The notes under the pieces are model-generated. The model was not told the origin of the DNA and did no database searches. It was given only the letters and a program-made list of their open reading frames with translations. Position numbers and translations under genes: made by a program. 64,000 nt of DNA from Parietichytrium sp. I65-24A (taxonomy: Eukaryota; Sar; Bigyra; Thraustochytrida; Thraustochytriidae). Below, one piece after another: positions 21,144 through 62,356 of the stretch. Positions within the stretch are counted from its first letter, which is position 1. Each line of letters opens with the position of its first letter. Location of the stretch: the NCBI GenBank assembly GCA_012862575.1, contig BLSF01000022.1:186001-250000 (forward strand). The letters are read 5' to 3'.

Positions 21144-23023
21144 TTGAGAAGTCAGCTTCAATCTTACTTTGATGCCGATAAATACAAGCAGGTCTTGCCA
21201 CAGGGCCTGTGAATTCGCAAATTCTGCTCTTGCACCCACTATAAAAGAAACTCGTCGTAAACGAACTTACTGTTAATTTCCATCTGTATTTTTTGTTGTT
21301 CGCCTTCCTTTTGCCTATCTGGGTACCTGAACCCATATCGTCTTACTGGATCGCAACCTCCAACACTCTTTAAAACGGGCCGTTCACCCTGGTCATCGTC
21401 GGTGGATGGCAGGATCTCCAGCAGCAGCAAAGAAGAAGAAGAAGAAGAGCCAACAAAGACCTTATTAGAGAGTGATAATTATGATTAGAACTGTTGAGTG
21501 TGAGTGGGAATGATACTTACGACGATACGCTAGAAGGAAAATTGAGCCGTTGAAGAATGACCGTGCCACTGGCAACCGTGCCACCGTGACGGTGACAGTG
21601 AGAGCCCATGCATGTGGGAGACAGCGGCGGCGACGTCAAGGTCTCGCGAGAATTAAATTTGACTGTTGAAAAAAAGTTTACTTGCTCGAGCCCCACCGCT
21701 TCTGCGCTGACGCGGCGGAATCATTCCCGCTTCCAGTGGCGTCCGTCCGAGAGCTGAGACTGATTACATTTGGCAATTGACCGTGAATGTTTTTGGACGG
21801 CCTAAACCATCCATAACACACCGAAGAATATATCTCAATCATGAGCCTCGGAGTCTAGATTTTTGCATGACATCGCATCGCATCGCATGCCCCAGTGCCA
21901 CCAGTGCCACCAGTCAATTCTTTACGTTACGTTACATTTGCAACTCTAAGAGCCTGTGCCTTTCTCTTTCTTTTCCTCTTCTGCCCCCAGCTTCAGAGGA
22001 GCAATTTTCAGTGTTCCGTGAGGGAAAAGGCTGGCAAAGTCTATGTACTGCATGTCCTGTGGGGAGGCGGAATATTACGTGCTTCGTTGCCCAATGATTT
22101 TGGGATTGAAACGAGTTGTTCCGTTCTGACTGCCTCTTTCCTCTGCGGTGCAACGGTGTGACGTAAGTCATTACTTCACATTTCATTTTATGCTGCTTTC
22201 AGCAGCAAGTAAGTAAAAGTGAAAATCAAAAAAGAATGCCAGAAACCGACAGCGACAGTGAGATCGCATCGAGGCATGCTGCGGCCAACCCCAAGCTTTG
22301 TAGCCTGAGATGCTATACTTCAACGATATTTTGAATTGCCCCACCCCGTCCCCTCCCCTCCCCGCGCCCCTCGAGAAACGCAGCAAAGATACAGGCATGA
22401 GGCTCAAAAGGCGGAGTGAATGGTTAGGAAGCGCCGCCCGCAGCGTAGTAAGCAGGACGTCACGCCCATCGGTCGTACCTGCTGGAGTACTGAAAGCTTG
22501 ATAAATTGATTGATTGATTGATTGGCTTGATGACAAAGAAAACGATCATATATTTGCCCAACCAATTTGAGTTGAAACTTCTCCGCAAGAACGCGTAGTT
22601 CGTTTTTCAATAGCTGGTAGGATACGGGTCTGACGTAAACGGAACCTCTGGCGATTTGCGCATATTAAGCAATTGAAAACTTCGCGAAGAGGGGCAAAGC
22701 CGTTGCTGCGATATGAAATTTTCACAGTGCGATGGAGGTTCGGGCACTCATTGCAAAACGAGAAACAGCCCTCTCTCTCGTGAGCAGGTCTATATTTATT
22801 TGTATAGATGCTCGATGGCCTTCGGGCCGACCTTTCAAAATCGATGGACCAGACCAGACCAGAACCCGAACACCGGAACAGCACCGGAGTGTTTGGGACG
22901 TTCGATACTTGGAACAGCACCGGAGTGTTTGGGACGTTCGATACTTGTGAAGCACCCGTTGTTCACTGTTACCTCGCCGATCATTAGTTTGCAAAAATTT
23001 GGTGAGCTTTCCCGTTCGCCAAA
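21144..23023. other. Gene-free stretch upstream of the rhodopsin gene
   Basis: 1880 bases. A short GAA run lies near 21432-21448, a GATT run near 22505-22522, and a tandem 36-mer just before the rhodopsin ATG (listed separately). Small frames have no conserved features. Confidence 0.5.
22875..22946. repeat. Perfect tandem duplication of a 36-mer upstream of the rhodopsin gene
   Basis: Two identical 36-base units (GGAACAGCACCGGAGTGTTT... ending TTCGATACTT) abut at 22910/22911, and the array ends 77 bases before the ATG at 23024. No differences between the copies, so the duplication is recent. It could lie in the promoter or in the 5' UTR. Confidence 0.95.
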
Positions 23024-24748
23024 ATGAGTGACATGGGCGTCTATGGCGCACGGCTGTGCACAGCCGTGAGCAGCATCGTTCTGGTGTGCTTTTACGCCAC
23101 TCAGATGTACTGGGGTCGATGCAACTTCCACCCGCTCTACGTCCAGAGTATCACTGCGATGGTGTATACTTTGAGCACCTTTGCAACAACTGGATTTTTG
23201 TCGGTGGAGTTGTGTGAGGGATCGGACATTGCTCAACGTGTGGAGCTCGGTCGCTACCTCTTCTGGATCATGACTTGCCCTGTCATCATCGCCAACCTCG
23301 TCGGCTTGCTTACCCGCCTCAGCCCTGAAGGAACCCCGCTATCCCGCACTGTTACCCTCATGTGCAAAGACATCATCATGACAGCTTTCGGGATTATTGG
23401 AGCTTTTCAGCCAGACGGTGTGATTAAGGTCATCTTCGTGACTCTGTCTTTCGTAGCGTACTTTATGCTCGGCTGGGATTTGTACAGAATCTTTCAAGAG
23501 AATCGTCACCATATGCCAGATCACATGATTCGACTCTTCATGATGATTGCCGTCTACGTCACGTTTGCATGGAACAACTTCGTCATTCTGTACGTCATCG
23601 GCTCGCCAATGTTTGGATTGATCAATGACTCCACGGATTCCATCGCGCATGCAGTTTCGGACTTGCTTGCAAAGAACATTGGTGGTTTCATCGTTTGGTA
23701 TTTCCGCTTCTTTATCGTCGAACCAGAGTACCAGGCACGGCGACTGAAGACTATGACTCACGGTGGGGGCTCCATGGCGATAGTCCCGTACAGCCTCGGC
23801 AAGAAGAAAAATGGCGGACAACGCGCAAGCAGAGGGACCATCCTCGTCATCGAGCCTCGCATCGAAATTCAGCGCCTTTTCTCTTATCTTCTTCAGAGTG
23901 TAGACTACCGCGCAACTTTTGCATTTGGGGTAGATGAAGGCCGCTCCATGCTCATGCGAGAGCCGAGCGATTTCTATGCGGCCATCTTAATTTCTTATCG
24001 TGATTTTGAGATGACCCCGGGACTCCTCGAGAATTTCAAGCCCTTCGCTTCTGGAGATCCGTACTACATCCCTATCCTTGGATACTCGTTCGATTTTGGA
24101 GCGGAAGAAAATGATGACGGCCCTGGTCGTGCGTGCTGCGATGGAATCGTTAGGCATCTTCTCGACGAAAACAAGGTTGCCGAGCAGATCGAATTCTGGA
24201 GGAAGGCCACAATGCAGTGGAAGGAGGCATTCAAGGTCCAGGAGAAGCAGCGCGAGTTCCTCGTCGGCAAGCCGCATCTTACAAGGGTGATGAATGAGCC
24301 AGCCTACGACATGGAGACGGAAAGCGTGTCTTCTCGCCAGCGCCGCAACTCCCAAGCTGAATCAATTGCGAGCAACGAGGACCCCGTTCTCATGGACGTA
24401 CCACGGGATCAGCCAGGCGACTATCCAAACAGCTTTAGCTTTTCTCGCCTCGAACAGGATGAGTTTGGACCTCGCCAAGCACAGCAGGTGACGTTTACCA
24501 GGTCGAACAGCAATGACCTGCAACAACCATTTCGCGACTCGCAAAGCTCCCGGGTGCGCTCCGCGGACCTTCAACAGCAAGCTAGATCCCCGCATGGGAT
24601 GCGCCCCCGAACTTTCTCGGAGGAAGACTTTGCCAACAATGGGGCACAGTCTCACGAGCTCCGCAGGACAAACTCTCGTGGTCAGCCAATCGATTATCAG
24701 CCACCACAGCCTCAACGCCGTGGAAGCCAGCAGTTCAATCGTATGTAG
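23024..24748 (+). CDS. Microbial (type I) rhodopsin, channelrhodopsin-like, fused to a degenerate receiver domain
   Basis: 574 residues from the ATG at 23024. Residues 1-235 form seven membrane helices. Helix C reads R-Y-L-F-W-I-M-T-C-P-V-I (77-88), with the T-C-P motif usual in channelrhodopsins. Helix G reads S-D-L-L-A-K-N (212-218): Lys217 is the retinal Schiff-base lysine and Asp213 matches bacteriorhodopsin Asp212. The Asp85 position is Phe80 and the Asp96 position is Asn91, so proton pumping is unlikely. Trp183 keeps the helix-F retinal-pocket Trp. Residues about 271-395 resemble a response-regulator receiver (I-L-V-I-E-P-R, A-A-I-L-I-S-Y-R-D), but the acidic pocket and phospho-Asp are not conserved. 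The last ~170 residues are disordered, Ser/Gln/Arg-rich. Labyrinthulomycetes are known to carry red-shifted anion channelrhodopsins (the RubyACR group); membership of this protein is an inference. Confidence 0.9.
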   Translation: MSDMGVYGARLCTAVSSIVLVCFYATQMYWGRCNFHPLYVQSITAMVYTLSTFATTGFLSVELCEGSDIAQRVELGRYLFWIMTCPVIIANLVGLLTRLSPEGTPLSRTVTLMCKDIIMTAFGIIGAFQPDGVIKVIFVTLSFVAYFMLGWDLYRIFQENRHHMPDHMIRLFMMIAVYVTFAWNNFVILYVIGSPMFGLINDSTDSIAHAVSDLLAKNIGGFIVWYFRFFIVEPEYQARRLKTMTHGGGSMAIVPYSLGKKKNGGQRASRGTILVIEPRIEIQRLFSYLLQSVDYRATFAFGVDEGRSMLMREPSDFYAAILISYRDFEMTPGLLENFKPFASGDPYYIPILGYSFDFGAEENDDGPGRACCDGIVRHLLDENKVAEQIEFWRKATMQWKEAFKVQEKQREFLVGKPHLTRVMNEPAYDMETESVSSRQRRNSQAESIASNEDPVLMDVPRDQPGDYPNSFSFSRLEQDEFGPRQAQQVTFTRSNSNDLQQPFRDSQSSRVRSADLQQQARSPHGMRPRTFSEEDFANNGAQSHELRRTNSRGQPIDYQPPQPQRRGSQQFNRM

Positions 24749-24774: not shown

Positions 24775-24780
24775 AATAAA
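24775..24780 (+). promoter_or_regulatory. Candidate polyadenylation signal of the rhodopsin gene
   Basis: AATAAA lies 26 bases after the stop codon, within CCAAAAATAAAGCGG. The motif is canonical, but its use in this organism is not shown. Confidence 0.35.
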
Positions 24781-31996: not shown

Positions 31997-33205
31997 CCCT
32001 TGGGCCCGCGTTGAAGCATTGCCCGTCGGCTGCACCGGAGTCTACTGCTGCACCAGAGTGTGATGGTCCCTACACGAGCGTGAATCAAATATTTTGCTAT
32101 TGTCTGTGAGATTTTTCAAGTTCCCGAGCCTCTTCGTTCGAAGAAGCAATGAAGACAGCTAGTAGAACGCGAAGCAAAAGCGCAAAAGGCACTGTCACCT
32201 TGAATCAATCTTCACGTACACGTGGCGGGCTTTCTCCCGGATCCAAGGTCACAAGTCAAGAATAGAATGGAGAACTTCAAACTTTGCCTTCTCCTCTATC
32301 ACTCAATCGTTGATCGAAGAGTCAAAGGAATCGAGGAAACCCCAAATCGAACGCAGCTGTGCCGCCCTTCCCTTGCAAAAGGAGCACAATAACATCAATA
32401 ACAATACTGACAACAACAACAACAACAACAACAACGGCGACAACGGCAGCCAAAGCATCGCTGACAAAAAGCAATGCAATGCGACTTGCAATGCAACAGA
32501 GCGCGGAACGAAACCAGGGCATAAAAAACGACTAGTTTCCTTCTCCGCAGACTCGCTCTCGGTCCGTTTCGGTCTCACCATCATCGGCCCCTTCCCCTGC
32601 CAGTCTCCACCCCAACTGTCTGGGGGCATTCGTATCTCAAAATATCACTCTCCCCCTCTGTAATACCGCCGAAATATTCTCTACCCGCCCCCGAAATACG
32701 CCTTCAAAAACGGTAACTTCTTCGCTTACTGGTAATCCTTCTATCATTCATCCATTCCTTTCCACCAAACCCAAAGCCAACGTCTAACTTTCAATTGAGG
32801 AAGAGTCTCTAGAGAAGAGACCAACTCTCAACTCTCAACTCTCAACTCACAACACTCACAACTCTCAACTCTCAACTATCGCTAATCAGCACACGTCGCG
32901 CGAGCTAGCAGTGGGTCAAGACACGGACGATACGGTGGAGCAAGCGGGTGGGTGGGCAAAGACTCCATGCGCGAGCCAGCGGGCTTGTCATAGAAGAAGT
33001 GAGTGGAAGAGATAGCTTGCACCTGTCCGTCGCTTTCGACCAAATCAGCGAGCAAAGTGAGCCAAGTGAGCCAAGTGAGCCGAGTGAGCCGAGGGAACGG
33101 CAGTCCGGCCAGTAGTCGTGCGGAAGGAGCCCGGCCCGAGAAGCATTCGCGGTAGCGACCAAGACACAGACCACAGACCACAGAGTACAGACAGTGTGGT
33201 GCAAG
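31997..33205. other. Divergent intergenic region between coiled-coil gene and IFT52
   Basis: Contains an AAC microsatellite (32410-32434), 7-base CTCAACT units (about 32822-32878) and 9-base AGTGAGCCA units (33056-33093), the last two in the IFT52 leader. No gene seen; frames across the AAC run are repeat artefacts. Confidence 0.6.
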
Positions 33206-34789
33206 ATGTCGGGCGAGAAGACGGAAGAGGAAGTGTCGGCAAGCGGCAAGGTGATTCTATTCGATGCCTCCAAGCGCGAGACGCACCATGCCGGAAGCGG
33301 CCTGAAGCGCCTTCACAGGCGACTGCGCAATAGCTACAAGATCGCGGTGAACAAGGACCCGCTGTCGAGGGATAAGTTGGCTGAGGCGAGCTTGGTGGTG
33401 TTTGGCGGGCCGAGGGAGAAGTTTTCCGCGGCGGAATTTGACATGCTCAAGGAGTATTTGGACAAGGGCGGCTCGGTACTTTTCATGCTTGGTGAAGGTG
33501 GCGAGGAAAAATACGGGACGAACATCAACTTTTTATTGGAGGAGTACGGAATATCGTTCAATAACGACAGTGTGGCGAGGACAGTGTACTATAAATATCT
33601 CCACCCGAAAGAAGTCTTTATTGGAAACGGCGTGCTCAATCGTGGTGTCGCGGAGGCTGCACAGCGCCTGTCGGGCAAGAAGTCAGACGGGCTCAAATCT
33701 AGCGACAAGCGCAAAAAGTCCTCTTCATCGATTTTGGCCAAACAACAGCAGCAGAAGAAAGCGCAAGGTAAAAACACAGACAAGAGCGGACTGGAGTTTG
33801 TCTACCCGTACGGAAGCTCGCTCAACGTCCAAAAGCCCGCTGTCGCCCTGCTCTCCTCTGGGCACATTGCCTACCCGCTGAACCGCCCAGTTGTTGCATG
33901 TGCGCAGAGCAAAGGTTCCCCCACCTGGGACCGAAAGGAGGGTGGAAGAATAGGAGTTGTCGGGTCCGTGGAAATGTTTTCCGATGAGTGGCTCAACAAG
34001 GAGGAGAACGAGAAGGTGTTTGATGTTTTGTTCAAGTGGCTGATCGGAGAGGGCGAGATTATTCTCGATCACGCGGACGCCGAAGACCCGGACATTAGTG
34101 ATTATCACCACATCCCACACACCGAGGCTCTAGCAGAGAGACTTCGGTCGTGCTTACAAGAAGGAGAGCAGCTCCCTCGAGATTTCACCCAGCTTTTCGA
34201 CGATGACATGTTCAAGTTGGACACGAACCTAATTCCTGAGACGATTGCTCTCTTCAAGCAGCTGCAAGTCAAGCACGAGCCGTTGTCCCTGATAGCTCCG
34301 CAGTTTGATGCTCCGCTGCCCTCTCTCCTACCTGCAGTATTTCCTCCGGCGATGCGTGAACCTCCGCCCCCAGCTCTGGACCAGTTTGATTTGGACGAGC
34401 ACTTTGCATCGGAGAGGTTGCGTCTTGCACAACTTACAAACAAATGCACAGACGAAGATTTGGAATACTACGTCCGAGAGAGTGGGGAGATTCTTGGTGT
34501 CCTGAAGGATCTTAAAGCAGACCCTGATGACTTTAAAGGCGAGTTTGGAGCCAAGAGGATCTTGGAGCACATTATGCGCGAGCTTGTTCGGTTTAAGAAT
34601 CTCAACCAGGATTTCTCTTCCGGCGTTTCAAACGAAAACAGTCAGTCCAACGCAAACTTGATGTCCGACAATCGCTTGGGGTCAGCGAAGCAGGCTGTGT
34701 TTATGAGAGGGGTACCCGAGGAAGAAAAGCAGAGCACTTTTGATGAGTCGAAAGCCGATTCTTACTTTGGGGACGAGGGTAAATTTTAA
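33206..34789 (+). CDS. IFT52: Intraflagellar transport protein 52
   Basis: 527 residues from the ATG at 33206 (four codons upstream begin with GTG only). The N-terminal GIFT domain is strongly conserved: V-I-L-F-D-A-S-K-R-E, G-P-R-E-K-F-S-A-A-E-F, FMLGEGGEEKYGTNINFLLE, E-Y-G-I-S-F-N-N-D and Y-L-H-P-K-E. After a Lys/Ser-rich insert comes F-V-Y-P-Y-G-S-S-L-N and I-G-V-V-G-S-V-E-M-F-S-D-E-W, then the helical C-terminus. IFT52 is a core scaffold of the IFT-B1 complex, needed to build cilia and flagella by anterograde transport. It is longer than the human protein (437) because of the insert near residues 155-195 and a Ser/Asn-rich tail. This is direct evidence that the organism makes a flagellum. 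Confidence 0.95.
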   Translation: MSGEKTEEEVSASGKVILFDASKRETHHAGSGLKRLHRRLRNSYKIAVNKDPLSRDKLAEASLVVFGGPREKFSAAEFDMLKEYLDKGGSVLFMLGEGGEEKYGTNINFLLEEYGISFNNDSVARTVYYKYLHPKEVFIGNGVLNRGVAEAAQRLSGKKSDGLKSSDKRKKSSSSILAKQQQQKKAQGKNTDKSGLEFVYPYGSSLNVQKPAVALLSSGHIAYPLNRPVVACAQSKGSPTWDRKEGGRIGVVGSVEMFSDEWLNKEENEKVFDVLFKWLIGEGEIILDHADAEDPDISDYHHIPHTEALAERLRSCLQEGEQLPRDFTQLFDDDMFKLDTNLIPETIALFKQLQVKHEPLSLIAPQFDAPLPSLLPAVFPPAMREPPPPALDQFDLDEHFASERLRLAQLTNKCTDEDLEYYVRESGEILGVLKDLKADPDDFKGEFGAKRILEHIMRELVRFKNLNQDFSSGVSNENSQSNANLMSDNRLGSAKQAVFMRGVPEEEKQSTFDESKADSYFGDEGKF

Positions 34790-43409: not shown

Positions 43410-45540
43410 GACTCGCTGGCCGTGATCTGGTTCTTCGACGCACTTTGTGGTCGATATCACGGTAGTACCCGTTCAACTTCACTGCCAAGCTATAGCTTTT
43501 CGAAACTTTAACCTCTCAAGCTCGCCTCTCAGCTCGGTTGCAATGATTGGAAGAACCTTGCCGTATTTTGCAAGACTTCCGCGCAGCACACTGAGCGAGC
43601 GTCAGCTGCGTTTGTTTTGCTAGACCATTTATCTTGATCAAAAAGAGTCGGTCGAAACGTAGAACTTGAAGAGAGTCATTCACCTATTTTGAGAACTAAC
43701 TGTAAATCATGAAATTCTCCGGGGATGAGCCTGAAGCGAGGCGTTATCTTTTCCCCGTCAAATTGCGAATGTAGTAAAAGCCATTCAAGTGAAGAAGTGG
43801 CCTGCCAAAGTAAAAGGGATGAGGAAGGTCGGGACTTGCTTGTTGCACGTAGAGCAAAGAGGACGCTGTGAAATCCGTACGGAGTTCACGAGGAGAGGAC
43901 AATGCGCTCAGAACCGGAAGAGATTACGCCACGTAGCAACCAAAGCGGAGTCTCAGTGTGCAACCTTGGGTCTCCTTAGGCAAAGACTCATCCGATGGGA
44001 TTTGATGTGGCTCTGATGCGGAGTCAATGAACCAACGTAAAACGAAGCAAAGGGATGCTGCTTGCCACAGACCATCGCTGGCAGGCGCTCTTCCTTTCAA
44101 GTTGAATAGCCGACCACTCTCTGCACCCCACCTTCCGACAGGATTTGTTTACGCTGCACTTCGTCGAAGCCACTTGCACTCTCTGTGCCATCAAATCCTG
44201 CGGAACACATTTCGCATCAGGCACCATCTTTCTCCAACTATTTATAACTATTTCCAACTCTTTCCAACTCCCTCGTATCCCACGTAGCTCCGAAACCGGC
44301 TATTCAACATTAGTCTACATATGTCTTCAGTCTTGGAGTGCCAGTCTCCATCGACAAGAGCCTGCTGCACGACTCAATCTTGCTGCTGGCGTTGCACAAC
44401 TTCACCCCATCTCGTTTCAATACACATCGCGGTCTGTGCGCAACTTCGGAATTCAGCACTTCTTTCCTTCTTCCTCCCGCACGAAATCTCATCGAATACT
44501 GGAGGTAACAGTTTCATAATGCAGCTCAGCTTCAGATAGCCTCTCTGGTAGGAGAGACTAGATGCCCGACTGTGGGACACCCAAGCACATTTGATCCCAA
44601 TTCCGGGGGACCAGTGAGGAAGATCGCACCAATCTCGGGGCAGTCTCTCAGCCTCGCAGCCTTCGAACAGATACCGTGCACACTATTCGATTCACTTATC
44701 CAGTATAATAGCGTTTAAGCTGTCCCTCTTATTTTAGGGGAGCATAAAAAATGAGATGTACAATATGGCGGCCGTTTTCCTTATCTATTGTTTATGGTAG
44801 ATAATACATATGCAACAACAGCGAACTGTGCCTGCTCTATCACGAACCGTATACACTACTAATCTCGAAACGCCATCTGTCCTTCAGCAATCTACCGCAA
44901 ATCATAAGTCTCACTACCACGAGAGTTAGTGTCTGACCGTTGTTCACCTCGCATCCTACCCAATTCCGTATCACAACCCATAGTACTTGACAAGCCCATC
45001 TCTCCTATCCGCTCCTACCACCAGCTTATACTCCTACCATATCCTCTAGTTAGAGCAGAACGGAACACCTGCGAGTACCGGCACTCCTACCCGAAGACTA
45101 CTGTACCGCCCTATCCCTTCCTATCCGGCCGTGGCCCAGAAGTGACGGAAGCTGGTGTGGATAAGACCCCAATAATGAGTATTCTAATGTTGCACGGGAG
45201 AAAGGGCGAGAGGAGTCCTATCGAATCCTAATGATAATCAGTAGCAGGAGGAGTCAAAATTCGACGCTCAGAAAGGGTCAAAAACAACGATGAACGAATG
45301 AAAGAAAGACTGATGGACTGTTCGATTGACGTCAATCAATCAATGAAAGAGTGAAAGAGTGAAAGAGTGAAAGAGAGAAAGAGAGAGAGAGAGGGATGGA
45401 CAAGCCGCGTTCAGATTGGAATGAGCATTGATTGAATGGAACGGAAGAGTTGCGAAGAGGTGTCCATTTGAAGAGCTAAAAGGTAAATCAGGAGATTGTT
45501 TGGGAGGCAAAGGCGGTCGGCTGGATGGGAGAGAGTGCGA
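43410..45540. other. Intergenic, no gene seen
   Basis: A CTAC/GTAC-rich patch lies at about 44690-45240. A GTGAAAGA repeat (about 45345-45393) lies 150 bases before the M6 protease ATG. Small frames show nothing recognisable. Confidence 0.5.
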
Positions 45541-47598
45541 ATGGGGAGACCGCGCTTCACAAGGCGCGTGGAGGGATGTCTGCTGTTTGTTTTGGCGGTG
45601 TTGGCAGGGGGAATAGGAGAGGCGCAAGCAATCATGCCCGCACCGAGGGTTGAGACAAACGCGGCCAAAACGTGGCTCCGAGGTGCCGACAAAGCACAAG
45701 AAGAAGAAGAAGAAGAAGTGGGTGTTCAGATTAATGGCGGAGACGAGGTGGTGTACAAGTCCTTGAACGGCTATGCTGTCGTAGAGCTTCGAAACGGAGA
45801 GCTCGCATACGCAGATCGCATTGACTCGGTCACGGGTTTTCTGCTCCCTGCAGAGAACGGTCTAGTAAGCCAAGTGGATGATCCTGCAAGGGAGCTCGGA
45901 GTGCTCCCTGGTCTGAGGCCTCAGCCCAGCAAGTACCGGACAAACGCCACTGATGACTGGGCAATTTTTCAGCGCAGAAAAGAGTCCTTCCAGGCGCACC
46001 GTCGGCGATTGCAATCAGGTAGCATCACACAAGAAGAAGACGCCCTGCAACTTGGAAGCTTGGTCCTCCTGCTGCGGTTTAGTGATCACCAGGACAGAGA
46101 GTTGCTGAGCAAAGACGACTACGAAATTTTCTTCAATCAGATGGGCGCTCACGAGACTCTTGCGCCGACAGGCTCCGTCAGAGAGTATTTTTCCAAACAG
46201 TCATATGGGCAAGTCGATATCCAAAGTACGGTCGTTGGTTGGATCGACGTCTCCGTCACGGAAGCGCAAGCTTCCGAGGGCTGCTCTGGGACCTGTGGTG
46301 CCGTGTGGGGTGGGTACTTGCACGATGCTATCAGCGAAGCCCTGAGAATTGCCGAAACCGATCTGGGAATTAACCTGGGCTCGTTTGATGATGACGGAGA
46401 CGGGGAAATTGATGGTCTGACCATTATCCATTCCGGTTACGGTGCAGAGTGGTCCAACGCCGATGAGGTTGGTACTCCCTCTTCGTGGCGTATCTGGAGC
46501 CACAAGTGGGAGCTCGCGGTGCCCTATGTCAGCAACCTTACCGGCGTCGTTGGACGGCGCTATAACGTCAACACTGGGTTTTGGGGTTCCAGCGGCGTAG
46601 GTATTTGCCGAATTGGGCAAGTATGTCACGAAATGTCTCACGGTCTCTTTGGACTGCCTGATCTGTATGATAATGTGGGGAACGCCACTGCCAGTATTAA
46701 TGTTTACGACATCATGTCGAATGCGTGGGGCATGGACAACACGCAGTTGTACCCTGGGTCGTTTTCGCCCTGGGTCAAGTACGAGCTGGGCTGGCTGGAG
46801 GCTGTAGAGCTCACTCGCACAGGAGACTATAGTATTCTTGCCTACCAGGGGGGTACTCGTCGAAGCTTGTACATAATTCACGACGGGTTCCCCGACAACG
46901 AATACATTTTAATTGAGAACCGGAGCCCCGATTCGAGACATGTTTTTGACTCAAAGCTTCCTGGAGGAATCATGGTCTGGCATATTGATGAATCGGTAGG
47001 GACGCGCTGGAATTATGACGAAGGTTATCCAGGGGACGGGGGCTATTGGCCAGCAAGGCATTACTTTGTTCGAATCATTCAGGCTGACAACTTGTGGCAC
47101 TTGGAGCGCGACGAATACTACACTTTTGATGCTGGGGACTATTTTCGAAATGAGAGTAGCGTGCTTTCTGACACTTCAACACCATCGCTCCTCTCCTATG
47201 AAGAGAGAGTTCGCAATTCGAGTGGTCAAGGGTGTACCAAGACCGGCCACCGGCTCTCTGAATTTCGCTCATCAGAGGCTGACCCAGAAACCTGGAGCTT
47301 CCGATACGAGAGGTTATCTCGTAATAAGTGTGAAGAGCCTGACGAGATCGAAAATGGAGAGGTCACGAGAAGCGACTCGGTGTGTGTGACATCAAATGAT
47401 CTTGAAACTGGGGTCGCGTTTCCAGCTGTGCCAAACCAAAGCGTCTGCATGGAGGAGTGCGGCGGAGACTGCTTCGCAGTGGTATGGAGGTCAGAGTCCT
47501 CCAGTTGTCAGATTTGGCGCGTTGAGCCGTCGCTTGGATTTCTCGAGCGAAGCTTCGCATGCATCCTCATGAGGCCTTTGCATCTCTCAGAGATCTAA
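45541..47598 (+). CDS. Secreted M6-family metalloprotease (immune inhibitor A-like) with cysteine-rich tail
   Basis: 685 residues from the ATG at 45541; the frame reaches further upstream only from non-ATG codons. A signal peptide (Arg-rich start, then C-L-L-F-V-L-A-V-L-A-G-G, cut near A-Q-A) leads to a ~150-residue pro-region with a Glu run. The catalytic domain has C-H-E-M-S-H-G-L-F-G-L-P-D-L-Y-D: zinc ligands His363 and His367, catalytic Glu364, and the conserved G-x-P-D. Before it is the family's F-D-D-D-G-D-G-E-I-D-G calcium-type loop and I-H-S-G-Y-G. After it is G-G-I-M-V-W-H-I-D-E. The last ~100 residues hold six or more Cys in a PAN/apple-like pattern. M6 enzymes degrade extracellular proteins. 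There is no TM segment, so it is probably released as a digestive protease. Confidence 0.9.
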   Translation: MGRPRFTRRVEGCLLFVLAVLAGGIGEAQAIMPAPRVETNAAKTWLRGADKAQEEEEEEVGVQINGGDEVVYKSLNGYAVVELRNGELAYADRIDSVTGFLLPAENGLVSQVDDPARELGVLPGLRPQPSKYRTNATDDWAIFQRRKESFQAHRRRLQSGSITQEEDALQLGSLVLLLRFSDHQDRELLSKDDYEIFFNQMGAHETLAPTGSVREYFSKQSYGQVDIQSTVVGWIDVSVTEAQASEGCSGTCGAVWGGYLHDAISEALRIAETDLGINLGSFDDDGDGEIDGLTIIHSGYGAEWSNADEVGTPSSWRIWSHKWELAVPYVSNLTGVVGRRYNVNTGFWGSSGVGICRIGQVCHEMSHGLFGLPDLYDNVGNATASINVYDIMSNAWGMDNTQLYPGSFSPWVKYELGWLEAVELTRTGDYSILAYQGGTRRSLYIIHDGFPDNEYILIENRSPDSRHVFDSKLPGGIMVWHIDESVGTRWNYDEGYPGDGGYWPARHYFVRIIQADNLWHLERDEYYTFDAGDYFRNESSVLSDTSTPSLLSYEERVRNSSGQGCTKTGHRLSEFRSSEADPETWSFRYERLSRNKCEEPDEIENGEVTRSDSVCVTSNDLETGVAFPAVPNQSVCMEECGGDCFAVVWRSESSSCQIWRVEPSLGFLERSFACILMRPLHLSEI

Positions 47599-47861: not shown

Positions 47862-49619
47862 TTAGAGCTTGCTCTCGTACAGTGGATTGGAGGCTTGGGT
47901 TGGAAGGCCGAGATCGGCGCGCGCTCCTGAAAACGCTGAAGACGAGGAAGCGCGAACTCTGCGAACGAAAAATGACCCAGCGACGAAAGCTACTACTGCT
48001 CCAGCCACCGACGCACCTGCGATAAATGCTACGCCGGATGAGCCTTCAGAGTTCGCACTGGAGAGTGTATTGACTTCAGCAGCTATTGCAGAACTGATTG
48101 TTACGTCCAAATTCTCAAAGTCGTACGCGCCAGAATTTCTTTGAGACCAATTTGAAGCGGTGCAAATGCGCTGCAGCATTTCAGTTCTTGTGCCCACTGT
48201 ATCTCCACTGTATACGTTTTCATCAAAATGATCCAAGGCCACTTCATGCAAGCCAGCCACCAAGCCTGGCGGAAGAGCTGAGTCTCGTGAGGAAATGGCG
48301 GATGAAGCGGAACTCCAAGAATTGCTCGAATAGAGGAAAGCAAAGATAAATTTTGGCGAAGAAGCGCTGCCAATGTAGACCAGAAGATTGTCCCCTGCAG
48401 TCGACGGCGCAAAACTTCCCTCCATTGACCAAGAAGGAGAGCCATCTTCGTAGAGGATGGTTTTTCCAGCAGAGACGCCGCCAGAAGGCACGGTATAGGA
48501 AACGGTCCCTTCAGTTGAGGCGAGCTCGCTTCCAAGCCACGCATTATCGGTGACAAAAATGACTGTGCCGGCCGCGACTGGGACTGTTGTCAGCAGCGCG
48601 AAAGACCTTGGCGAATCAGAGTTCAGTCCAACTACGACAATGTCGCCTGCGGCGAGTTTGGCCGAGGATGGGGTTTCTGTCGGGAAGGGTGTTGGGACTT
48701 GGTTCGCTGCGGAAGGGTGTGACGTCGACTGTGTGGAAGGAAAGGGGGTCGGGCCGGTCGTGACGTACTCCAATGGCACGTTGCACGATTCCGCAGGTTC
48801 TTCCCAGTCGCCAGCTAAAAAGATTCGGTCTGCTAGCTCTGGAAAGTCAACGAAGGGGTTGCGGTTGTTCTGATACATTGAGCAAACTTTGCTGTTTCGA
48901 ATCTGCTCCAATTTGCTGGGCGGATATTCCCTATTCCACTGCAGGAGAACATTTAGCTTGCCCATAAACTTGTTCTCTTTACCCGGGCAGTTGCTGAGCA
49001 AGAGTCGAGTTTCATTGACATCATCATCGTCTCTGTTGTAGCGAGTTGTCATGTACAGCAACGAACGGGCCACTTCGCCACGGCGATTGACTGGCGGCAT
49101 GAAAAATTCGTCCTTGAGCATACCGGTATCCAGCGCGGCATCGCCAGAAGCAGGTACCGTGCATTCGGTCCCACAGATGTCAAAGTACAGGTTGCCTCTC
49201 AAATTGTTTATATCTTTCTCTGTTGCCCGGATGTGATGAAGGTCGGAGTCGTCACTTCCGGAATACTCAACTCCCTTTTTCCTTGGCCAGAGATGCTCTC
49301 GGTTCCACGTCCCCCCAGAGCCTACAACGTTATCATCCTTGTTCCAGGCAACGTCCTTGTAAAAGAGGTGGACCATATTCGTCGACTCATCACCATTGTA
49401 CGCCTCCAAAATTTTGATGGCGTCGTAGGTATCGAGAACATCTCGTTCGGAGTAAGGAATGCTCTTGTGATCTTTTCGCAAGCGCACGCTCAGGGCTTCA
49501 GACAACTCCGCGCCCTTCAAGGTCATGTCCACGGATGCGTAGTAGGTTTCCACGTCGCAATCCTCTCCAGACACGATGCCAACACCTGCGGCGGCCAAGG
49601 CAAGCAAAACCTTCATCAT
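47862..49619 (-). CDS. Membrane-anchored endonuclease I, paralogue 1
   Basis: 585 residues from the ATG at 49619. A signal peptide (first ~18) precedes an Endonuclease_1 (EndA/NucM, PF04231-type) domain with N-R-E-H-L-W-P (106-112; His109 the likely general base), D-L-H-H-I-R-A-T (126-133), and N-N-L-R-G-N-L-Y-F-D (metal-ligand Asn segment). Several Cys indicate disulphides. A Pro/Thr linker (T-P-F-P) leads to a second beta-rich domain (G-D-I-V-V-V-G-L-N, then A-G-T-V-I-F-V-T-D-N-A-W), a module seen in bacterial secreted proteins. A single C-terminal TM helix and a short cytosolic tail with S-N-P-L-Y-E-S-K-L follow. The predicted job is degrading extracellular DNA/RNA at the cell surface. This is the most diverged of the three paralogues. 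Confidence 0.9.
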   Translation of the reverse strand: MMKVLLALAAAGVGIVSGEDCDVETYYASVDMTLKGAELSEALSVRLRKDHKSIPYSERDVLDTYDAIKILEAYNGDESTNMVHLFYKDVAWNKDDNVVGSGGTWNREHLWPRKKGVEYSGSDDSDLHHIRATEKDINNLRGNLYFDICGTECTVPASGDAALDTGMLKDEFFMPPVNRRGEVARSLLYMTTRYNRDDDDVNETRLLLSNCPGKENKFMGKLNVLLQWNREYPPSKLEQIRNSKVCSMYQNNRNPFVDFPELADRIFLAGDWEEPAESCNVPLEYVTTGPTPFPSTQSTSHPSAANQVPTPFPTETPSSAKLAAGDIVVVGLNSDSPRSFALLTTVPVAAGTVIFVTDNAWLGSELASTEGTVSYTVPSGGVSAGKTILYEDGSPSWSMEGSFAPSTAGDNLLVYIGSASSPKFIFAFLYSSNSWSSASSAISSRDSALPPGLVAGLHEVALDHFDENVYSGDTVGTRTEMLQRICTASNWSQRNSGAYDFENLDVTISSAIAAEVNTLSSANSEGSSGVAFIAGASVAGAVVAFVAGSFFVRRVRASSSSAFSGARADLGLPTQASNPLYESKL

Positions 49620-51502: not shown

Positions 51503-53323
51503 TTAGTACGAGTCGGCCTTGAACATCGGGTTGGTGGAGACTGCCGCGACTGGCGGGCCTCCCGCGAGCTCCTTGTTGGATGCGGCAGCAGCCCTCCTCT
51601 TCCTCACGACGACCGCCGCCACCACGGCCACGCAGACGACTCCCACAGCTCCGCCGGCAGCCAGCGCCGCGCTGGAAACACCAGAGGTCTCTGCTTCTTC
51701 TTCGGCAGCGTCGCCGGCGGCGTACTCTGCGACGGAAGCAGTGGAGGACACGGAGAATGACATGGAGCTGAACGAGTAGGTGGACGAGTCGCTGCCAGCC
51801 CAGTTGCTCTCAGTGGCGATGGCAGAGAGCAGCGAGGCGCGCGAGCCGGAGGTGGTGCCGCCGTAGCGGTAGTTGTCCTTGTGCGAGAGGGTGAGCTCGT
51901 GCAGACCTGCGGTGAGAGACGACGGCAGAGCGGACTGCTTGGACGTGAGCGACGTGGACGCCGAGCTCCATGAAGATCCGGTGTACAGCAGCGCGAAGAG
52001 GAAGGTGGGCGACGACTCGGAGCCAGTGTACACGAGCAAGTTGTCGCCCGATGTGGATGGGATGAAGTTGCCCGATGTTGTCCAGGAGGAGGACCCGTCG
52101 GTGTACTGGAAGACCGTGCCCTTGGAGATGCCGCCGGAGGGGACGGTGTACGAGGCAGTGCCCTCCGTGCCGCTGAACGCGCTGCCGTACCATGCGTTGT
52201 CCGTGATGGAGATGACCGTGCCGGCGGCGATGTCCACGGTCGCGAGCAGGGCGACGGCCTTGGTGGAGTCCGAGTTGAACCCGACGATCGCCACGTCACC
52301 AGCAGCGAGGCTCGTTGGCGCCGCGTTGGGGTAAGGCGTTGGGTTGGCGGTGGTTGGCGCCGCGTTAGGGTAAGGGGTCGGGTTGGCGGTGGTTGGCGTG
52401 GTCACCGGGTATGGTGTCGGGCTGGTGACTGGGCTCGGGTTGGTTGACGGCATCTCGGTGATTGTGGGCGTCGGGCTGCTGGAGCAACCGGACCCAGCTG
52501 GGTCTGACCAGTCGCTGGCACCGTAGATCTGCTGGACGAGATCAGGGTAGTCAACGAAAGGGTTGCGGTTGCCCTGGAACTGGGAGCAGACGAGGTAGTT
52601 TCTGTTGCGCTCCCAGTCATCAGGAGGGTCCAGCTCGTGCCAGGTCAAGAGGGTGCTGAGCTTGCCCATCAAACCGTTGCTGTCGCTAGGGCAGTTGCTG
52701 AGTCTCAGGTTCATGGTACTCGAGTCGGACCCGTCGTAGCGGGTTGCCATGTAGAAGAGCGAGCGAGCGATGTCCCCGCGGCGGTTTGCGGGAGGCATGA
52801 AGCGGTCGCTGTCCTTGGCGGTGTCCGCAGCGGCCTCCGAGTGAGCTGGCACGGTGCAGCCACTCTCGCAAAAGTCAAAATAAAGGTTACTGCGAGCAGA
52901 GTTGACGTTCATGTCTGCTGCGCGAAGGTTGTGCAGGTCGGAAAAGTCCGCGCCCGAATCATCAATGCCGTAGCTCTTTGGCCACGTGTGCTCGCGATTC
53001 CAGGCGCCATTCACACCGTCGCCGGAGGTGTCGTCCTTGTCCCAGGGCACGTTCTTGTAGATGAGAAGGACCTTGGACGAGTCGCCTTCGTAGGCGTCCA
53101 CGACCTTGAGCGCGTCCCACACATCCGTGGAGGACGAGGTGTAAGGAATCACGGTGTGTCCGTCAATGAGGTCGTGAAGAACACTGTTGAGCGAGGTACC
53201 AGTCTTAGTGAGGTCCACGCCAGAGTAGTACGTGCTGAGCGCACACGAAGCTGCGCTCTGTGCTTCGGTCTGCGCGGCGCCGGCGACGACAGCCGCGGCG
53301 GCCACCAAGAACTTGGAATGCAT
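51503..53323 (-). CDS. Membrane-anchored endonuclease I, paralogue 2
   Basis: 606 residues from the ATG at 53323 (M-H-S-K-F-L); the open frame continues upstream with non-ATG codons only. The signal peptide ends near A-Q-S. The catalytic domain has N-R-E-H-T-W-P (109-115) and D-L-H-N-L-R-A-A (129-136), with Asn where the paralogues have a second His, plus N-S-A-R-S-N-L-Y-F-D. The linker holds a P-T-P-Y-P-N-A-A repeat. The second domain (G-D-V-A-I-V-G-F-N, A-G-T-V-I-S-I-T-D-N-A-W) matches paralogue 1. A TM helix (A-V-G-V-V-C-V-A-V-V-A-A-V-V-V) and an R-K-R-R start lead to a tail ending T-N-P-M-F-K-A-D-S-Y. Its catalytic domain is far closer to paralogue 3 than to paralogue 1, so these two share a younger duplication. 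Confidence 0.9.
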   Translation of the reverse strand: MHSKFLVAAAAVVAGAAQTEAQSAASCALSTYYSGVDLTKTGTSLNSVLHDLIDGHTVIPYTSSSTDVWDALKVVDAYEGDSSKVLLIYKNVPWDKDDTSGDGVNGAWNREHTWPKSYGIDDSGADFSDLHNLRAADMNVNSARSNLYFDFCESGCTVPAHSEAAADTAKDSDRFMPPANRRGDIARSLFYMATRYDGSDSSTMNLRLSNCPSDSNGLMGKLSTLLTWHELDPPDDWERNRNYLVCSQFQGNRNPFVDYPDLVQQIYGASDWSDPAGSGCSSSPTPTITEMPSTNPSPVTSPTPYPVTTPTTANPTPYPNAAPTTANPTPYPNAAPTSLAAGDVAIVGFNSDSTKAVALLATVDIAAGTVISITDNAWYGSAFSGTEGTASYTVPSGGISKGTVFQYTDGSSSWTTSGNFIPSTSGDNLLVYTGSESSPTFLFALLYTGSSWSSASTSLTSKQSALPSSLTAGLHELTLSHKDNYRYGGTTSGSRASLLSAIATESNWAGSDSSTYSFSSMSFSVSSTASVAEYAAGDAAEEEAETSGVSSAALAAGGAVGVVCVAVVAAVVVRKRRAAAASNKELAGGPPVAAVSTNPMFKADSY

Positions 53324-53897
53324 TTTGTTGCTTGCTGACGATTTGGTTGGAAGATTGCTGTGCGATTGCTCGCGGTGAGCTGTGCTCTTTGAGCTTTGCG
53401 AGTTTGGGGTTTGCTGTCTGGCAATTTGGATTTGCAATCTTTGATCAATCGATCAATCAATGGGATCTGAGAGGAGGAGGATGGCAAAGTGCCAGTTCTA
53501 CCTCTTTGGGCTAGGCGGGCAGGCAGACAGCAAAAGGGAACGGGCGGTTCTGAAAAGTGTCAATGTGGCCAGGTCTGAGACCGGAACGGCGCAAGGTGAA
53601 AAAGGCCAGCACGCACGCACAGGTCAAACAGACGGAAGCGAAGTGCAAACGCAGCTCCTTGCCACCGGGGAAGGGGGCGGACTCGGTCGGATCCACTTCG
53701 GAGCACGGCAGGGTTGAACGTTGGGTCCGAGTTCGTGGAGGTTCCCGGCGTTGTTGTCGGCACTTTCCTAAGCTGAAAGGGGGGAAATCGCTTCTTGATT
53801 CTCCTCTTTGTGGCTTTCGCAAGCGTCCTGACAGAGACTGCCTTGGTAGCTGAACGCCGGAAAGAAAGTCTAGCTACGGAGGCGAGTGGCTGGCGGA

Positions 53898-60196: not shown

Positions 60197-62356
60197 TTAG
60201 TAACTGCTCTGGTACATCGGATTGACAATCGCCTTCGGGGAGTGGTTTTGGAACTCCTCCTCCTGCTTGCCTTTCCGCACCTTCAGCACGAAGAAGACAG
60301 CGATCGCCGCAAGAAACAACACTCCTGCTACGCTACCACCAATAATGGCGCCAAGTGCGCTGGATCCTTCCTTTTCAAACACGGAACCGGAGTCGAGATC
60401 CTCAACGACCACAGAGGCGGACGAGACTGAGGAGCACACTTGGCAGGTCTTTGGACACGCAGAGCGAACGGACGAGTACGATGAGCAGTACCTGTATAGG
60501 TCGCTGCACTCAGCTGCAGAGCCGTCCGAATAGTAGAGTCCGCTCGGAATGCTGTCCTCGCAAGATGAACCGCAGAGCCCGCATGTCAACTTGCAGTTGG
60601 CTTGAACCACGGTGCTGGTCTTGCAGTAGCCGGTCAAAGTGCTGCAAGGTGCGGCGCTTCCGTCAGACCAGGTGAGGCCCTCTTCATTGACGCACTCTTC
60701 GTCGCCGGAGGAGGTTGGCTTCGGGGTTGGCGCTGGAGCAGTGCCTCCGACAGTAAAGCTCATGTCGTCGAAGGAGTAGGTCTCCGTGTTGCTTCCGACC
60801 CAGTTCGACTCTGTGGAGATGGCAGAGATCAAGTACTCTCGGGATCCTGAGGTTGGCCCGGTGTACTTGTAGTTATCCAAGTGAGGGAGTGCAATCTCGT
60901 ACACGCCCTCAGTCAGGGCGGATGGCAGAGCGGACTCGGTCGAGCCCAGAGAAGAAGACGGAGAGCTCCATGACGCGCTCGAGTACAAAAGGCCGTACAA
61001 GAAGTTTGGCGAGGTGGAAGACCCGGTCATCACGAAGATGTTGTCCCCAGAAGTAGACGGAACGAAGTTTCCAGAGATGGACCAGGAGGAGGATCCAGCT
61101 GTGTACTGGAACACCGTGCCCTTGGAGATGGTGGAAGTTGTGGTGAAAGAACTCGTGCCCTCGTTGTCATTGAGCTCGCTGCCGGTCCAGGTGTTGTCCG
61201 TCAAGGTGATAGTGGTTCCAGCCGCGATGTCCACAGTGGCCAGGAGAGCGATGGCTTTTGCGGAGTCTGAGTTGATGCCAACAATCACAACATCACCAAG
61301 AGAGAGTCCCGAAGGGTTGCTGACTGGAGAAGGGGTGCTGACTGGAGAAGGGGTAGAGGCAGATGGAAAAGGCGTTGGCAGAACACTTGGTGTGGTCGGC
61401 GTGGTCACCGGTGATGCGGTCGGCGTGGGCACCGGCGATGGAGTAGCAGTGGGAGAGCTCACCGGATTGGTGGATGGCATTTGGGTCACCGTAGGAGTTG
61501 GGCTGTTGGAGCAACCAGATCCAGCTGGGTCAGTCCAGTCGCTGGCGCCATAGATTTGCTGCACCAGCTCCGGGTAGTCCACAAACGGGTTGCGGTTGCC
61601 CTGGAACTGCGAGCAGACAAGGAAGTTCCTGTTGCGCTCCCAGTCATCAGGAGGGTCCAGCTCGTGCCAGGTCAAGAGCGTGCTGAGCTTGCCCATCATC
61701 CCAGCAGAGTCGCTTGGGCAGTTGGAAAGTTGGAGGTCTATGGTGCTCGCGTCGGTCCCGTCGTAGCGTGTCGCCATGTAAAAGAGCGATCGAGCGATGT
61801 CTCCGCGGCGGTTTGCAGGAGGCATAAAGCGGAGTGAGTCCTTGGCGGTGTCTGCAGCAGCTTCCGAGTGAGCAGGGACGGTGCAGCCAGTCTCGCAAAA
61901 GTCAAAGTAAAGGTTTCCGCGCGCAGAGTTGACATTCGAGTCTGAGGCGCGAAGGTGATGAAGGTCAGAATAGTCCGAACCGCTGTCCTCTCCGACACCG
62001 TAGCTCTTTGGCCACGTGTGCTCGCGGTTCCATGCGCCGTTGTTATTACCGTCGCCAAGGGTGTCGTCCTTGTCCCAGGGCACATTTTTGTAGATGAGAA
62101 GCACCTTGGACGAGTCGCCTTCGTAGGCGTCCACAACCTTGAGGGCATCCCACACATCAGTCGAGCTCGCAGTGTAAGGAATTCTGGTGTGTCCGTCAAT
62201 GAGGTCATGCAGGACTGAGTCAAGCGCGGAGCCAGTCTTTGTGAGGTCCACGCCAGAGTAATAGGTGCTGATTTCGCATGCGGCTGCGCTCTGAGCGTTG
62301 GTCTGGCTGGCGCTGGCGACGACAGCCGCTGCGGCCAACAGGCACTTGGAGTGCAT
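60197..62356 (-). CDS. Membrane-anchored endonuclease I with two ShKT domains, paralogue 3
   Basis: 719 residues from the ATG at 62356 (M-H-S-K-C-L). Signal peptide, then the catalytic domain with N-R-E-H-T-W-P (110-116), D-L-H-H-L-R-A-S (131-138) and N-S-A-R-G-N-L-Y-F-D. A Pro/Thr/Ser linker (T-P-S-P-V-S repeats), then the second beta-rich domain (G-D-V-V-I-V-G-I-N, I-T-L-T-D-N-T-W). Two six-Cys ShKT-like modules follow: C-V-N-E-E-G ... C-K-L-T-C-G-L-C, and C-E-D-S-I ... C-P-K-T-C-Q-V-C. ShKT modules occur in extracellular enzymes and toxins. A TM helix (G-S-V-A-G-V-L-F-L-A-A-I-A-V-F-F-V-L) and a basic tail end V-N-P-M-Y-Q-S-S-Y. The catalytic part is nearly identical to paralogue 2, so the ShKT pair was gained in this copy or lost in the other. 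Confidence 0.9.
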   Translation of the reverse strand: MHSKCLLAAAAVVASASQTNAQSAAACEISTYYSGVDLTKTGSALDSVLHDLIDGHTRIPYTASSTDVWDALKVVDAYEGDSSKVLLIYKNVPWDKDDTLGDGNNNGAWNREHTWPKSYGVGEDSGSDYSDLHHLRASDSNVNSARGNLYFDFCETGCTVPAHSEAAADTAKDSLRFMPPANRRGDIARSLFYMATRYDGTDASTIDLQLSNCPSDSAGMMGKLSTLLTWHELDPPDDWERNRNFLVCSQFQGNRNPFVDYPELVQQIYGASDWTDPAGSGCSNSPTPTVTQMPSTNPVSSPTATPSPVPTPTASPVTTPTTPSVLPTPFPSASTPSPVSTPSPVSNPSGLSLGDVVIVGINSDSAKAIALLATVDIAAGTTITLTDNTWTGSELNDNEGTSSFTTTSTISKGTVFQYTAGSSSWSISGNFVPSTSGDNIFVMTGSSTSPNFLYGLLYSSASWSSPSSSLGSTESALPSALTEGVYEIALPHLDNYKYTGPTSGSREYLISAISTESNWVGSNTETYSFDDMSFTVGGTAPAPTPKPTSSGDEECVNEEGLTWSDGSAAPCSTLTGYCKTSTVVQANCKLTCGLCGSSCEDSIPSGLYYSDGSAAECSDLYRYCSSYSSVRSACPKTCQVCSSVSSASVVVEDLDSGSVFEKEGSSALGAIIGGSVAGVLFLAAIAVFFVLKVRKGKQEEEFQNHSPKAIVNPMYQSSY

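What the first reader, a model, noticed from the sequence alone, without database searches (positions are those of the whole stretch)
23024..24748. Rhodopsin fused to a degenerate receiver (pseudoreceiver) domain
Seen: seven helices with the retinal Lys217 and helix-G Asp213, followed in the same frame by a receiver-like fold (I-L-V-I-E-P-R, A-A-I-L-I-S-Y-R-D) lacking the acidic pocket and phospho-Asp, then a Ser/Gln-rich tail. Known: channelrhodopsins often have long cytosolic C-termini, and labyrinthulomycetes have red-absorbing anion channelrhodopsins. Inferred: a light-gated channel whose cytosolic part is regulated without phosphotransfer, or which serves as a docking platform.
Basis: partly seen in the sequence, partly recalled or inferred. 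Interest (0 to 1): 0.85.

Follow-up and report, generated by a model that had tools for sequence, protein, structure and literature searches.

The report
Channelrhodopsin fused to phosphorylation-dead receiver
A protist, probably a thraustochytrid, carries a light-gated channel joined in one protein to a worn-down bacterial-type receiver that can no longer take a phosphate in the usual way; its two sister genes carry the same part, which suggests that the unexplained tail of these light sensors is a real, conserved domain.

Summary
The ORF at 23024-24748 (574 aa, one open frame) is a type-1 rhodopsin (residues 1-245) with retinal Lys217 and Asp213. A receiver-like domain (about 272-403) and an Arg/Ser/Gln-rich tail follow in frame.

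The rhodopsin is channelrhodopsin-like: profile and structure searches put channelrhodopsins first, and the pump carboxylates and six ChR2 glutamates are replaced. Three colour-tuning residues match the red labyrinthulid ACR HfACR1 (Phe/Met/Ala). Two residues reported as unique to RubyACRs are missing (Trp and Val, not Gln and Ile), so it is not a RubyACR proper.

No Pfam model finds the receiver. Profile comparison with the genome's own receivers (score 42, shuffles at most 18), weak PDB profile hits and a modest AlphaFold model point to the CheY fold. The phospho-Asp is Ser324, the second pocket Asp Pro278, the Lys His378; Glu277 and Ser355 remain. By a published definition it is an aspartate-less pseudo-receiver.

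Both other rhodopsins found in the genome share it, and one metagenomic relative shares its first half; one paralog adds a MYND finger. Best reading: a light-gated, probably anion, channel for zoospore light sensing with a phosphotransfer-independent docking module. The docking role is inferred.

The parts
23024..24748 (+). whole ORF, 574 aa, one open frame: rhodopsin - linker - pseudo-receiver - low-complexity tail
   Evidence: same architecture in both paralogs
23024..23758 (+). seven-helix rhodopsin, residues 1-245 (helix G runs to about residue 245 in the model)
   Evidence: Pfam PF01036 E 4.3e-23; helices 3-29, 35-53, 75-98, 106-128, 132-163, 166-200, 204-245 in the model
23660..23674 (+). 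Asp213 - Leu - Leu - Ala216 - Lys217: counterion, red-shift Ala and retinal lysine in helix G
23759..23836 (+). low-confidence basic/Gly linker, residues 246-271
   Evidence: pLDDT under 50 for 242-269; in most pairs the least conserved part (residues 237-270)
23837..24232 (+). pseudo-receiver (aspartate-less receiver) domain, residues 272-403
   Evidence: Pfam silent, NCBIfam without a credible match
23852..23857 (+). Glu277-Pro278 at the CheY D12/D13 positions; the same in 4 of 4 sequences
23993..23995 (+). Ser324 at the phospho-Asp position (Ser, Asn, Asn in the three relatives)
24086..24088 (+). Ser355 at the CheY Thr87 position; the same in 3 of 3 sequences that reach it
24155..24157 (+). 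His378 at the CheY Lys109 position
   Evidence: alignment register
24233..24745 (+). C-terminal tail, residues 404-574; the part counted (421-574) is Arg/Ser/Gln-rich with 7 R-x-x-S/T motifs
   Evidence: 7 against 3.2 expected, 2.3% of 5000 shuffles reach it; not seen in the L002 tail (1 against 1.9) or for this motif in L003 (1 against 0.75)
24775..24780 (+). AATAAA, possible polyadenylation signal 27 bases after the stop (motif recalled)

Best explanation
The gene encodes a channelrhodopsin of the labyrinthulid type whose cytosolic half contains an aspartate-less receiver (pseudo-receiver). Light isomerises retinal on Lys217 and opens a pore in the seven-helix part, most likely to anions; the change in membrane potential steers or arrests the flagellated zoospore. 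The pseudo-receiver follows helix G through a short flexible linker. It cannot run ordinary Asp phosphotransfer and serves as a protein-docking module that places or clusters the channel and perhaps senses its state. Ser/Thr phosphorylation of the Arg-rich tail would adjust it. Shown here: the fused frame, the channelrhodopsin-type sequence, the receiver fold by profile and model, the missing catalytic residues and the shared architecture in the paralogs. Inferred: anion selectivity, zoospore role, docking, tail phosphorylation.
For: Channel: with a four-sequence profile the first 9 PDB sequences listed are all channelrhodopsins or designs from them (E 7e-28 to 1.5e-24), the first pump follows at 1.2e-17; the first 15 Foldseek rows for the whole model are channelrhodopsins. 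BR Asp85 and Asp96 are Phe80 and Asn91; ChR2 E82, E83, E90, E97, E101 and E123 are all replaced in the window gene, and no Glu stands at these positions in 4 of 4 sequences; [quoted passage not shown] Receiver. The region is present in 3 of 3 rhodopsin loci found in the genome and its first half in P0002; identity window to L002 is 33% in the receiver and 41% in the rhodopsin part, window to L003 30% and 29%. Docking precedents for pseudo-receivers: FrzS, CikA with KaiB (PMC12632262, sections 19-20). The L003 paralog carries a MYND finger (residues 594-628, E 1e-6), which I recall as a protein-binding domain. Zoospore: IFT52 in the same window; in A. limacinum the three channelrhodopsins fall after the zoospore stage, one of three significantly (PMC12221091, passage). 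Retinal supply: RPE65-family frames in the genome.
Against: No electrophysiology, no partner, no expression data for this gene. The window's receiver part alone is barely above decoys, and the PDB profile hits are each not significant alone (best E 0.041) with 3 of 6 not receivers. The AlphaFold models are of modest confidence (pLDDT 54 and 65) and form no clear fifth strand. The L002 rhodopsin scored alone hits a pump slightly before channels (1.8e-9 against 1.9e-8). The tail motif enrichment is weak and not shared by the paralogs. [quoted passage not shown]
Confidence: 0.6

Rival explanations
1. The pseudo-receiver is a decoy or regulator of the cell's own phosphorelay: it binds Hpt or histidine kinase without accepting phosphate and so couples light to two-component signalling.
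For: The genome gave 16 receiver matches, 7 HisKA matches (6 over the cut-off) and 1 Hpt match. The conserved columns include the first strand and helix (E277-P278, Q283, L285), the face that in ordinary receivers meets the kinase or Hpt (recalled). PMC12632262 discusses pseudo-receivers acting on partner kinases.
Against: No interaction data; only one Hpt was found; conservation over 3-4 sequences is too thin to map a surface.
Confidence: 0.15
2. The domain is a vestige: the channel descends from a rhodopsin-histidine kinase-receiver protein that lost its kinase, and the receiver now only fills space or stabilises the protein.
For: Rhodopsins followed by kinase and receiver are known in green algae (PMC7693036 and PMC7714340, passages). 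Phosphotransfer residues are lost.
Against: The domain survives in 3 of 3 paralogs whose rhodopsin parts differ by 59-71% and keeps motifs of its own (E-P, F-A, G-Y-S, L-D-E, two Trp). A useless domain would be expected to have been lost or broken in at least one.
Confidence: 0.15
3. The cytosolic part is some other alpha/beta domain (flavodoxin-like or Rossmann) and the receiver likeness is convergence.
For: Pfam does not recognise it and NCBIfam gives nothing credible; two Rossmann-type structures are among the 50 rows shown by VIA-align and decarboxylases take 11 of the 50 Foldseek rows shown; 3 of 6 PDB profile hits are not receivers; fifth strand not formed.
Against: Sequence profiles, not only folds, pick receivers: the first two of the six PDB sequences under E 10, and the comparison with the genome's own receivers.
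Confidence: 0.07
4. The rhodopsin is a pump or a pure sensor, not a channel.
For: L002 alone hits a pump first; other rhodopsins with effector domains are sensors (recalled).
Against: No carboxylate at BR 85 or 96 in 4 of 4 sequences; channelrhodopsins first for window, L003 and the family profile.
Confidence: 0.1

Closest known systems
RubyACRs and other labyrinthulid anion channelrhodopsins (HfACR1, AlACR1-3)
   Same: Phe/Met/Ala at BR 85/118/215 as in HfACR1, no Glu90, three genes per genome as reported for A. limacinum, probably the same host group
   Different: Window gene has Trp183 and Val187 where PMC11473104 gives Gln and Ile as unique to RubyACRs. Whether their cytosolic part holds this same domain could not be checked: the 2020 PNAS paper is not held and no such sequence turned up in the collections searched.
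Chlorophyte channelrhodopsins (ChR2, C1C2, Chrimson)
   Same: Best matches in sequence and model; Thr-Cys-Pro motif and the C128-D156 pair kept in the window gene
   Different: Six channel glutamates replaced; a 2020 search for modular ChRs lists FimV, UL36 and MED15 fusions and no receiver (PMC7693036, passages)
Histidine-kinase rhodopsins / two-component cyclase opsins of green algae (COP5/HKR1)
   Same: Rhodopsin and receiver in one chain (PMC7693036, passages)
   Different: Those have kinase (and cyclase) domains; here none was found, and the receiver lacks its Asp
Aspartate-less pseudo-receivers (FrzS, KaiA/CikA, plant PRRs)
   Same: Receiver fold without a working phospho-Asp site; many studied cases act through binding (PMC12632262 sections 4, 19, 20)
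   Different: No example in the three sections read is tied to an ion channel; a scan of all Pfam-A up to E 10 listed no receiver or pseudo-receiver model for any of the three genome proteins

Membership tests
Type-1 (microbial) rhodopsin | seven helices, Schiff-base Lys in helix G | tested here: met
   PF01036 E 4.3e-23, seven helices, Lys217
Channelrhodopsin | closer in sequence to channelrhodopsins than to pumps; no pump donor and acceptor carboxylates | tested here: met
   the L002 paralog alone does not separate channel from pump
Channelrhodopsin | light-gated passive ion current | not testable with these tools
   needs patch clamp
Labyrinthulid ACR | no Glu at ChR2 Glu90 | tested here: met
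   Thr44; rule from PMC8406140 (passage), which also fits prasinophyte ACRs
Labyrinthulid ACR | source organism is a labyrinthulomycete | tested here: inconclusive
   CrtI-CrtB fusion in one frame fits thraustochytrids but is reported elsewhere too; rRNA search not answered
Labyrinthulid ACR | groups with labyrinthulid ACRs in a tree | not tested
   no reference sequences in the collections used
RubyACR (red-absorbing subgroup) | Phe, Met, Ala at BR 85, 118, 215 | tested here: met
   Phe80, Met119, Ala216; positions from PMC12448745
RubyACR (red-absorbing subgroup) | Gln and Ile at the places of MsACR1 W182 and G186 (G186 given as BR Pro186) | tested here: not met
   Trp183 and Val187 (PMC11473104). 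So not filed as a RubyACR
Receiver (REC) fold | (beta-alpha)5 fold, homology to receivers | tested here: met
   four of five strands only: the fifth is not formed in either model
Canonical receiver | DD, D, T/S, K all present | tested here: not met
   E277, P278, S324, S355, H378
Pseudo-receiver / aspartate-less receiver (definition of PMC12632262) | receiver lacking at least one of the five residues, and the Asp for the aspartate-less subset | tested here: met
   with the definition read
Histidine-kinase rhodopsin | kinase domain between rhodopsin and receiver | tested here: not met
   only PF01036 listed in the chain up to E 10; the linker of about 26 residues leaves no room

The most novel reading that the evidence does not exclude
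Labyrinthulid channelrhodopsins are two-output receptors: besides the ion current, the pseudo-receiver reads the photocycle through helix G and passes it, without phosphate, to partners of the cell's phosphorelay or flagellar machinery. The family would be the surviving half of an ancestral rhodopsin-kinase-receiver protein, and paralogs with different colours (and one with a MYND finger) would address different partners.
Probability: 0.15. Interest if true: 0.78.

Novelty: new variant of a known kind. Interest (0 to 1): 0.55.

Why it matters
PMC12448745 (eLife 2025) states that the role of the channelrhodopsin C-terminal domain, up to half of the chain, remains unclear (passage). If that half is a pseudo-receiver in labyrinthulid channels, there is a defined domain to delete, swap or use as bait, which makes the question directly testable. 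It would also suggest a link between channelrhodopsins and two-component rhodopsins in origin and offer a natural cytosolic handle for optogenetic tools.

Tried and rejected
Protein search of 5.8 billion sequences with the three paralogs (E up to 1e-3), with the rhodopsin parts (up to 1e-5) and with the receiver parts (up to 1): one relative, P0002, in the first two searches (in the second it was itself part of the query), none in the third. I infer that this collection holds few eukaryotes. Viral contigs: 72 and 45 pattern matches, none a relative. Prokaryote genomes with the receiver part: 120 pattern matches, none a relative. A second prokaryote scan (80 loci) and two plasmid rhodopsins were fetched as pump references for a tree; I made no tree because, without labyrinthulid or other ACR references, three groups in an unrooted tree cannot show which two are sisters.

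'Channelrhodopsin' with 'receiver domain' gave 0 papers. With 'response regulator' 36 papers were listed; of these I looked at passages in PMC12558739, PMC7693036 and PMC7714340, which describe kinase rhodopsins and not receiver-fused channels; the other 33 I saw only as a listing. Passages alone were also seen of PMC8406140 (plus its section 7), PMC8818676, PMC12221091, PMC8815786, PMC10147648, PMC9601134 and PMC10016063; PMC11473104 section 6 and PMC12448745 section 8 besides passages; PMC12632262 abstract, passages and sections 4, 19, 20. I found no print of this fusion in those searches, but the library lacks the RubyACR paper and Rozenberg 2020, either of which may mention it.

Full report
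What is there. The frame 23024-24748 on the + strand is open from ATG to stop, 574 aa, and lies in contig C22 of a 42.5 Mb genome of 172 contigs. Pfam lists only Bac_rhodopsin (37-228, E 4.3e-23) up to E 10; NCBIfam lists nothing credible. An AATAAA stands 27 bases after the stop (motif recalled). Three loci with this family were found in the genome, 3 of 3 over the cut-off: the window gene, L002 on C101 and L003 on C16. All three have a receiver-like region at the same place.

The rhodopsin. A profile of the window gene, both paralogs and one metagenomic relative puts nine channelrhodopsin sequences (native, chimeric or designed) first among 173 PDB sequences matched (60 shown), E 7e-28 to 1.5e-24, with the first pump at 1.2e-17. 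The window gene alone and L003 alone agree; L002 alone does not separate channel from pump. The whole-protein model (pLDDT 65) matches channelrhodopsins in the first 15 Foldseek rows, ChR2 first with E 9.7e-10. Read from the alignment (ChR2 positions carried over from the alignment, BR positions by my numbering): BR Asp85 and Asp96 are Phe80 and Asn91; ChR2 E82, E83, E90, E97, E101, E123 are His36, Pro37, Thr44, Ser51, Thr55, Phe80; Cys85 and Asp116 keep the ChR2 C128-D156 pair; Asp213, Lys217 and Asn218 are kept. Loss of Glu90 fits labyrinthulid ACRs (PMC8406140, passage). Anion selectivity is a prediction.

Colour. PMC12448745 (section 8) shows that Phe104, Met143 and Ala242 keep HfACR1 red-shifted; the window gene and L002 have all three, L003 has none (Ser, Leu, Ser) and P0002 two. 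The same paper warns that these residues sit in blue-absorbing ancyromonad channels too, so they do not fix the colour. PMC11473104 (section 6) gives Gln and Ile at the places of MsACR1 W182 and G186 as unique to RubyACRs; here they are Trp and Val, and in the other three sequences Trp and Pro. So none of the three genes found in this genome is a RubyACR proper by that mark, and the window gene's colour is uncertain, perhaps toward the red.

Catalytic residues. DD is Glu-Pro in 4 of 4; the phospho-Asp is Ser, Ser, Asn, Asn; Thr/Ser is Ser in 3 of 3 that reach it; Lys is His, Asn, His (P0002 ends before the last two). By the definition of PMC12632262 this is a pseudo-receiver of the aspartate-less kind. 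That review quotes about 4% of receivers as aspartate-less and describes docking, ligand binding, covalent modification and multimer control as ways pseudo-receivers act (sections 4, 19, 20).

Conservation. Between window and L002 identity is 41% in the rhodopsin and 33% in the receiver; window to L003 29% and 30%; L002 to L003 30% and 23%; the linker is lower for window to L003, 18%. The receiver is thus held nearly as well as the channel, which speaks against a dead remnant. Among the columns invariant in the three are E277-P278, Q283, L285, F299-A300, R312, G353-Y354-S355, L380-D381-E382, W392 and W399. L003 ends in a MYND finger, residues 594-628, E 1e-6. The window tail has 7 R-x-x-S/T motifs against 3.2 expected (2.3% of shuffles); the tails of L002 and L003 show no excess of it. 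This is a weak hint.

Organism and setting. A single open frame holds Amino_oxidase (which I take as CrtI) and phytoene synthase domains, the fusion that PMC10016063 describes in thraustochytrids and, with a further domain, in an apusomonad (passages); Pfam named no lycopene cyclase in the 1257 residues read. IFT52 lies at 33194-34789 of the window, so the organism probably makes flagella. RPE65-type frames, seven matches at five loci, one of them with stops, could supply retinal. Two-component parts exist: 16 receiver, 7 HisKA (6 over the cut-off) and 1 Hpt match. In A. limacinum the channelrhodopsins fall after the zoospore stage, significantly for one of three (PMC12221091, passage).

How it probably works. 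Light opens the channel; the current acts on the flagellum. The receiver domain, tied to helix G by a linker of about 26 residues, docks the channel to a partner without phosphate. The first step is by family knowledge, the second is inference. Rivals are a phosphorelay decoy, a vestige, or another fold (see the fields).

Novelty. Channelrhodopsins with long cytosolic parts and pseudo-receivers are both known. In the searches listed under Tried and rejected I saw no report of the two joined, but the two papers most likely to mention it are not held. I call it a new variant of a known kind. The interest lies in giving an unexplained half of these proteins an identity that can be tested.

Noticed in passing
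L003:1117-3021 (-): The third channelrhodopsin paralog ends in a MYND zinc finger (PF01753, residues 594-628, E 1e-6) after a Gln/Pro-rich tail: rhodopsin, pseudo-receiver and MYND in one chain.
   Followed up: partly
22875-22946: A perfect tandem duplication of 36 bases (36 of 36 alike) ends 77 bases before the ATG of the rhodopsin gene.
   Followed up: partly
47862-49619, 51503-53437, 60197-62356 (all -): Three Endonuclease_1 (PF04231) proteins, each with a hydrophobic stretch near either end as read by eye, stand in a row; a local expansion of what look like secreted or anchored nucleases.
   Followed up: no
45496-47598 (+): Peptidase_M6 (immune inhibitor A type) protein beside the nuclease row.
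   Followed up: no
33194-34789 (+): IFT52 homolog, 8.4 kb downstream of the rhodopsin gene.
   Followed up: partly
L112 (G000:C89): CrtI-CrtB fusion in a frame of about 1400 aa, with a hydrophobic C-terminal part that Pfam does not name.
   Followed up: partly
L111 (G000:C31:176351-177949): An RPE65-family match with three stops inside: pseudogene, intron or assembly error.
   Followed up: no
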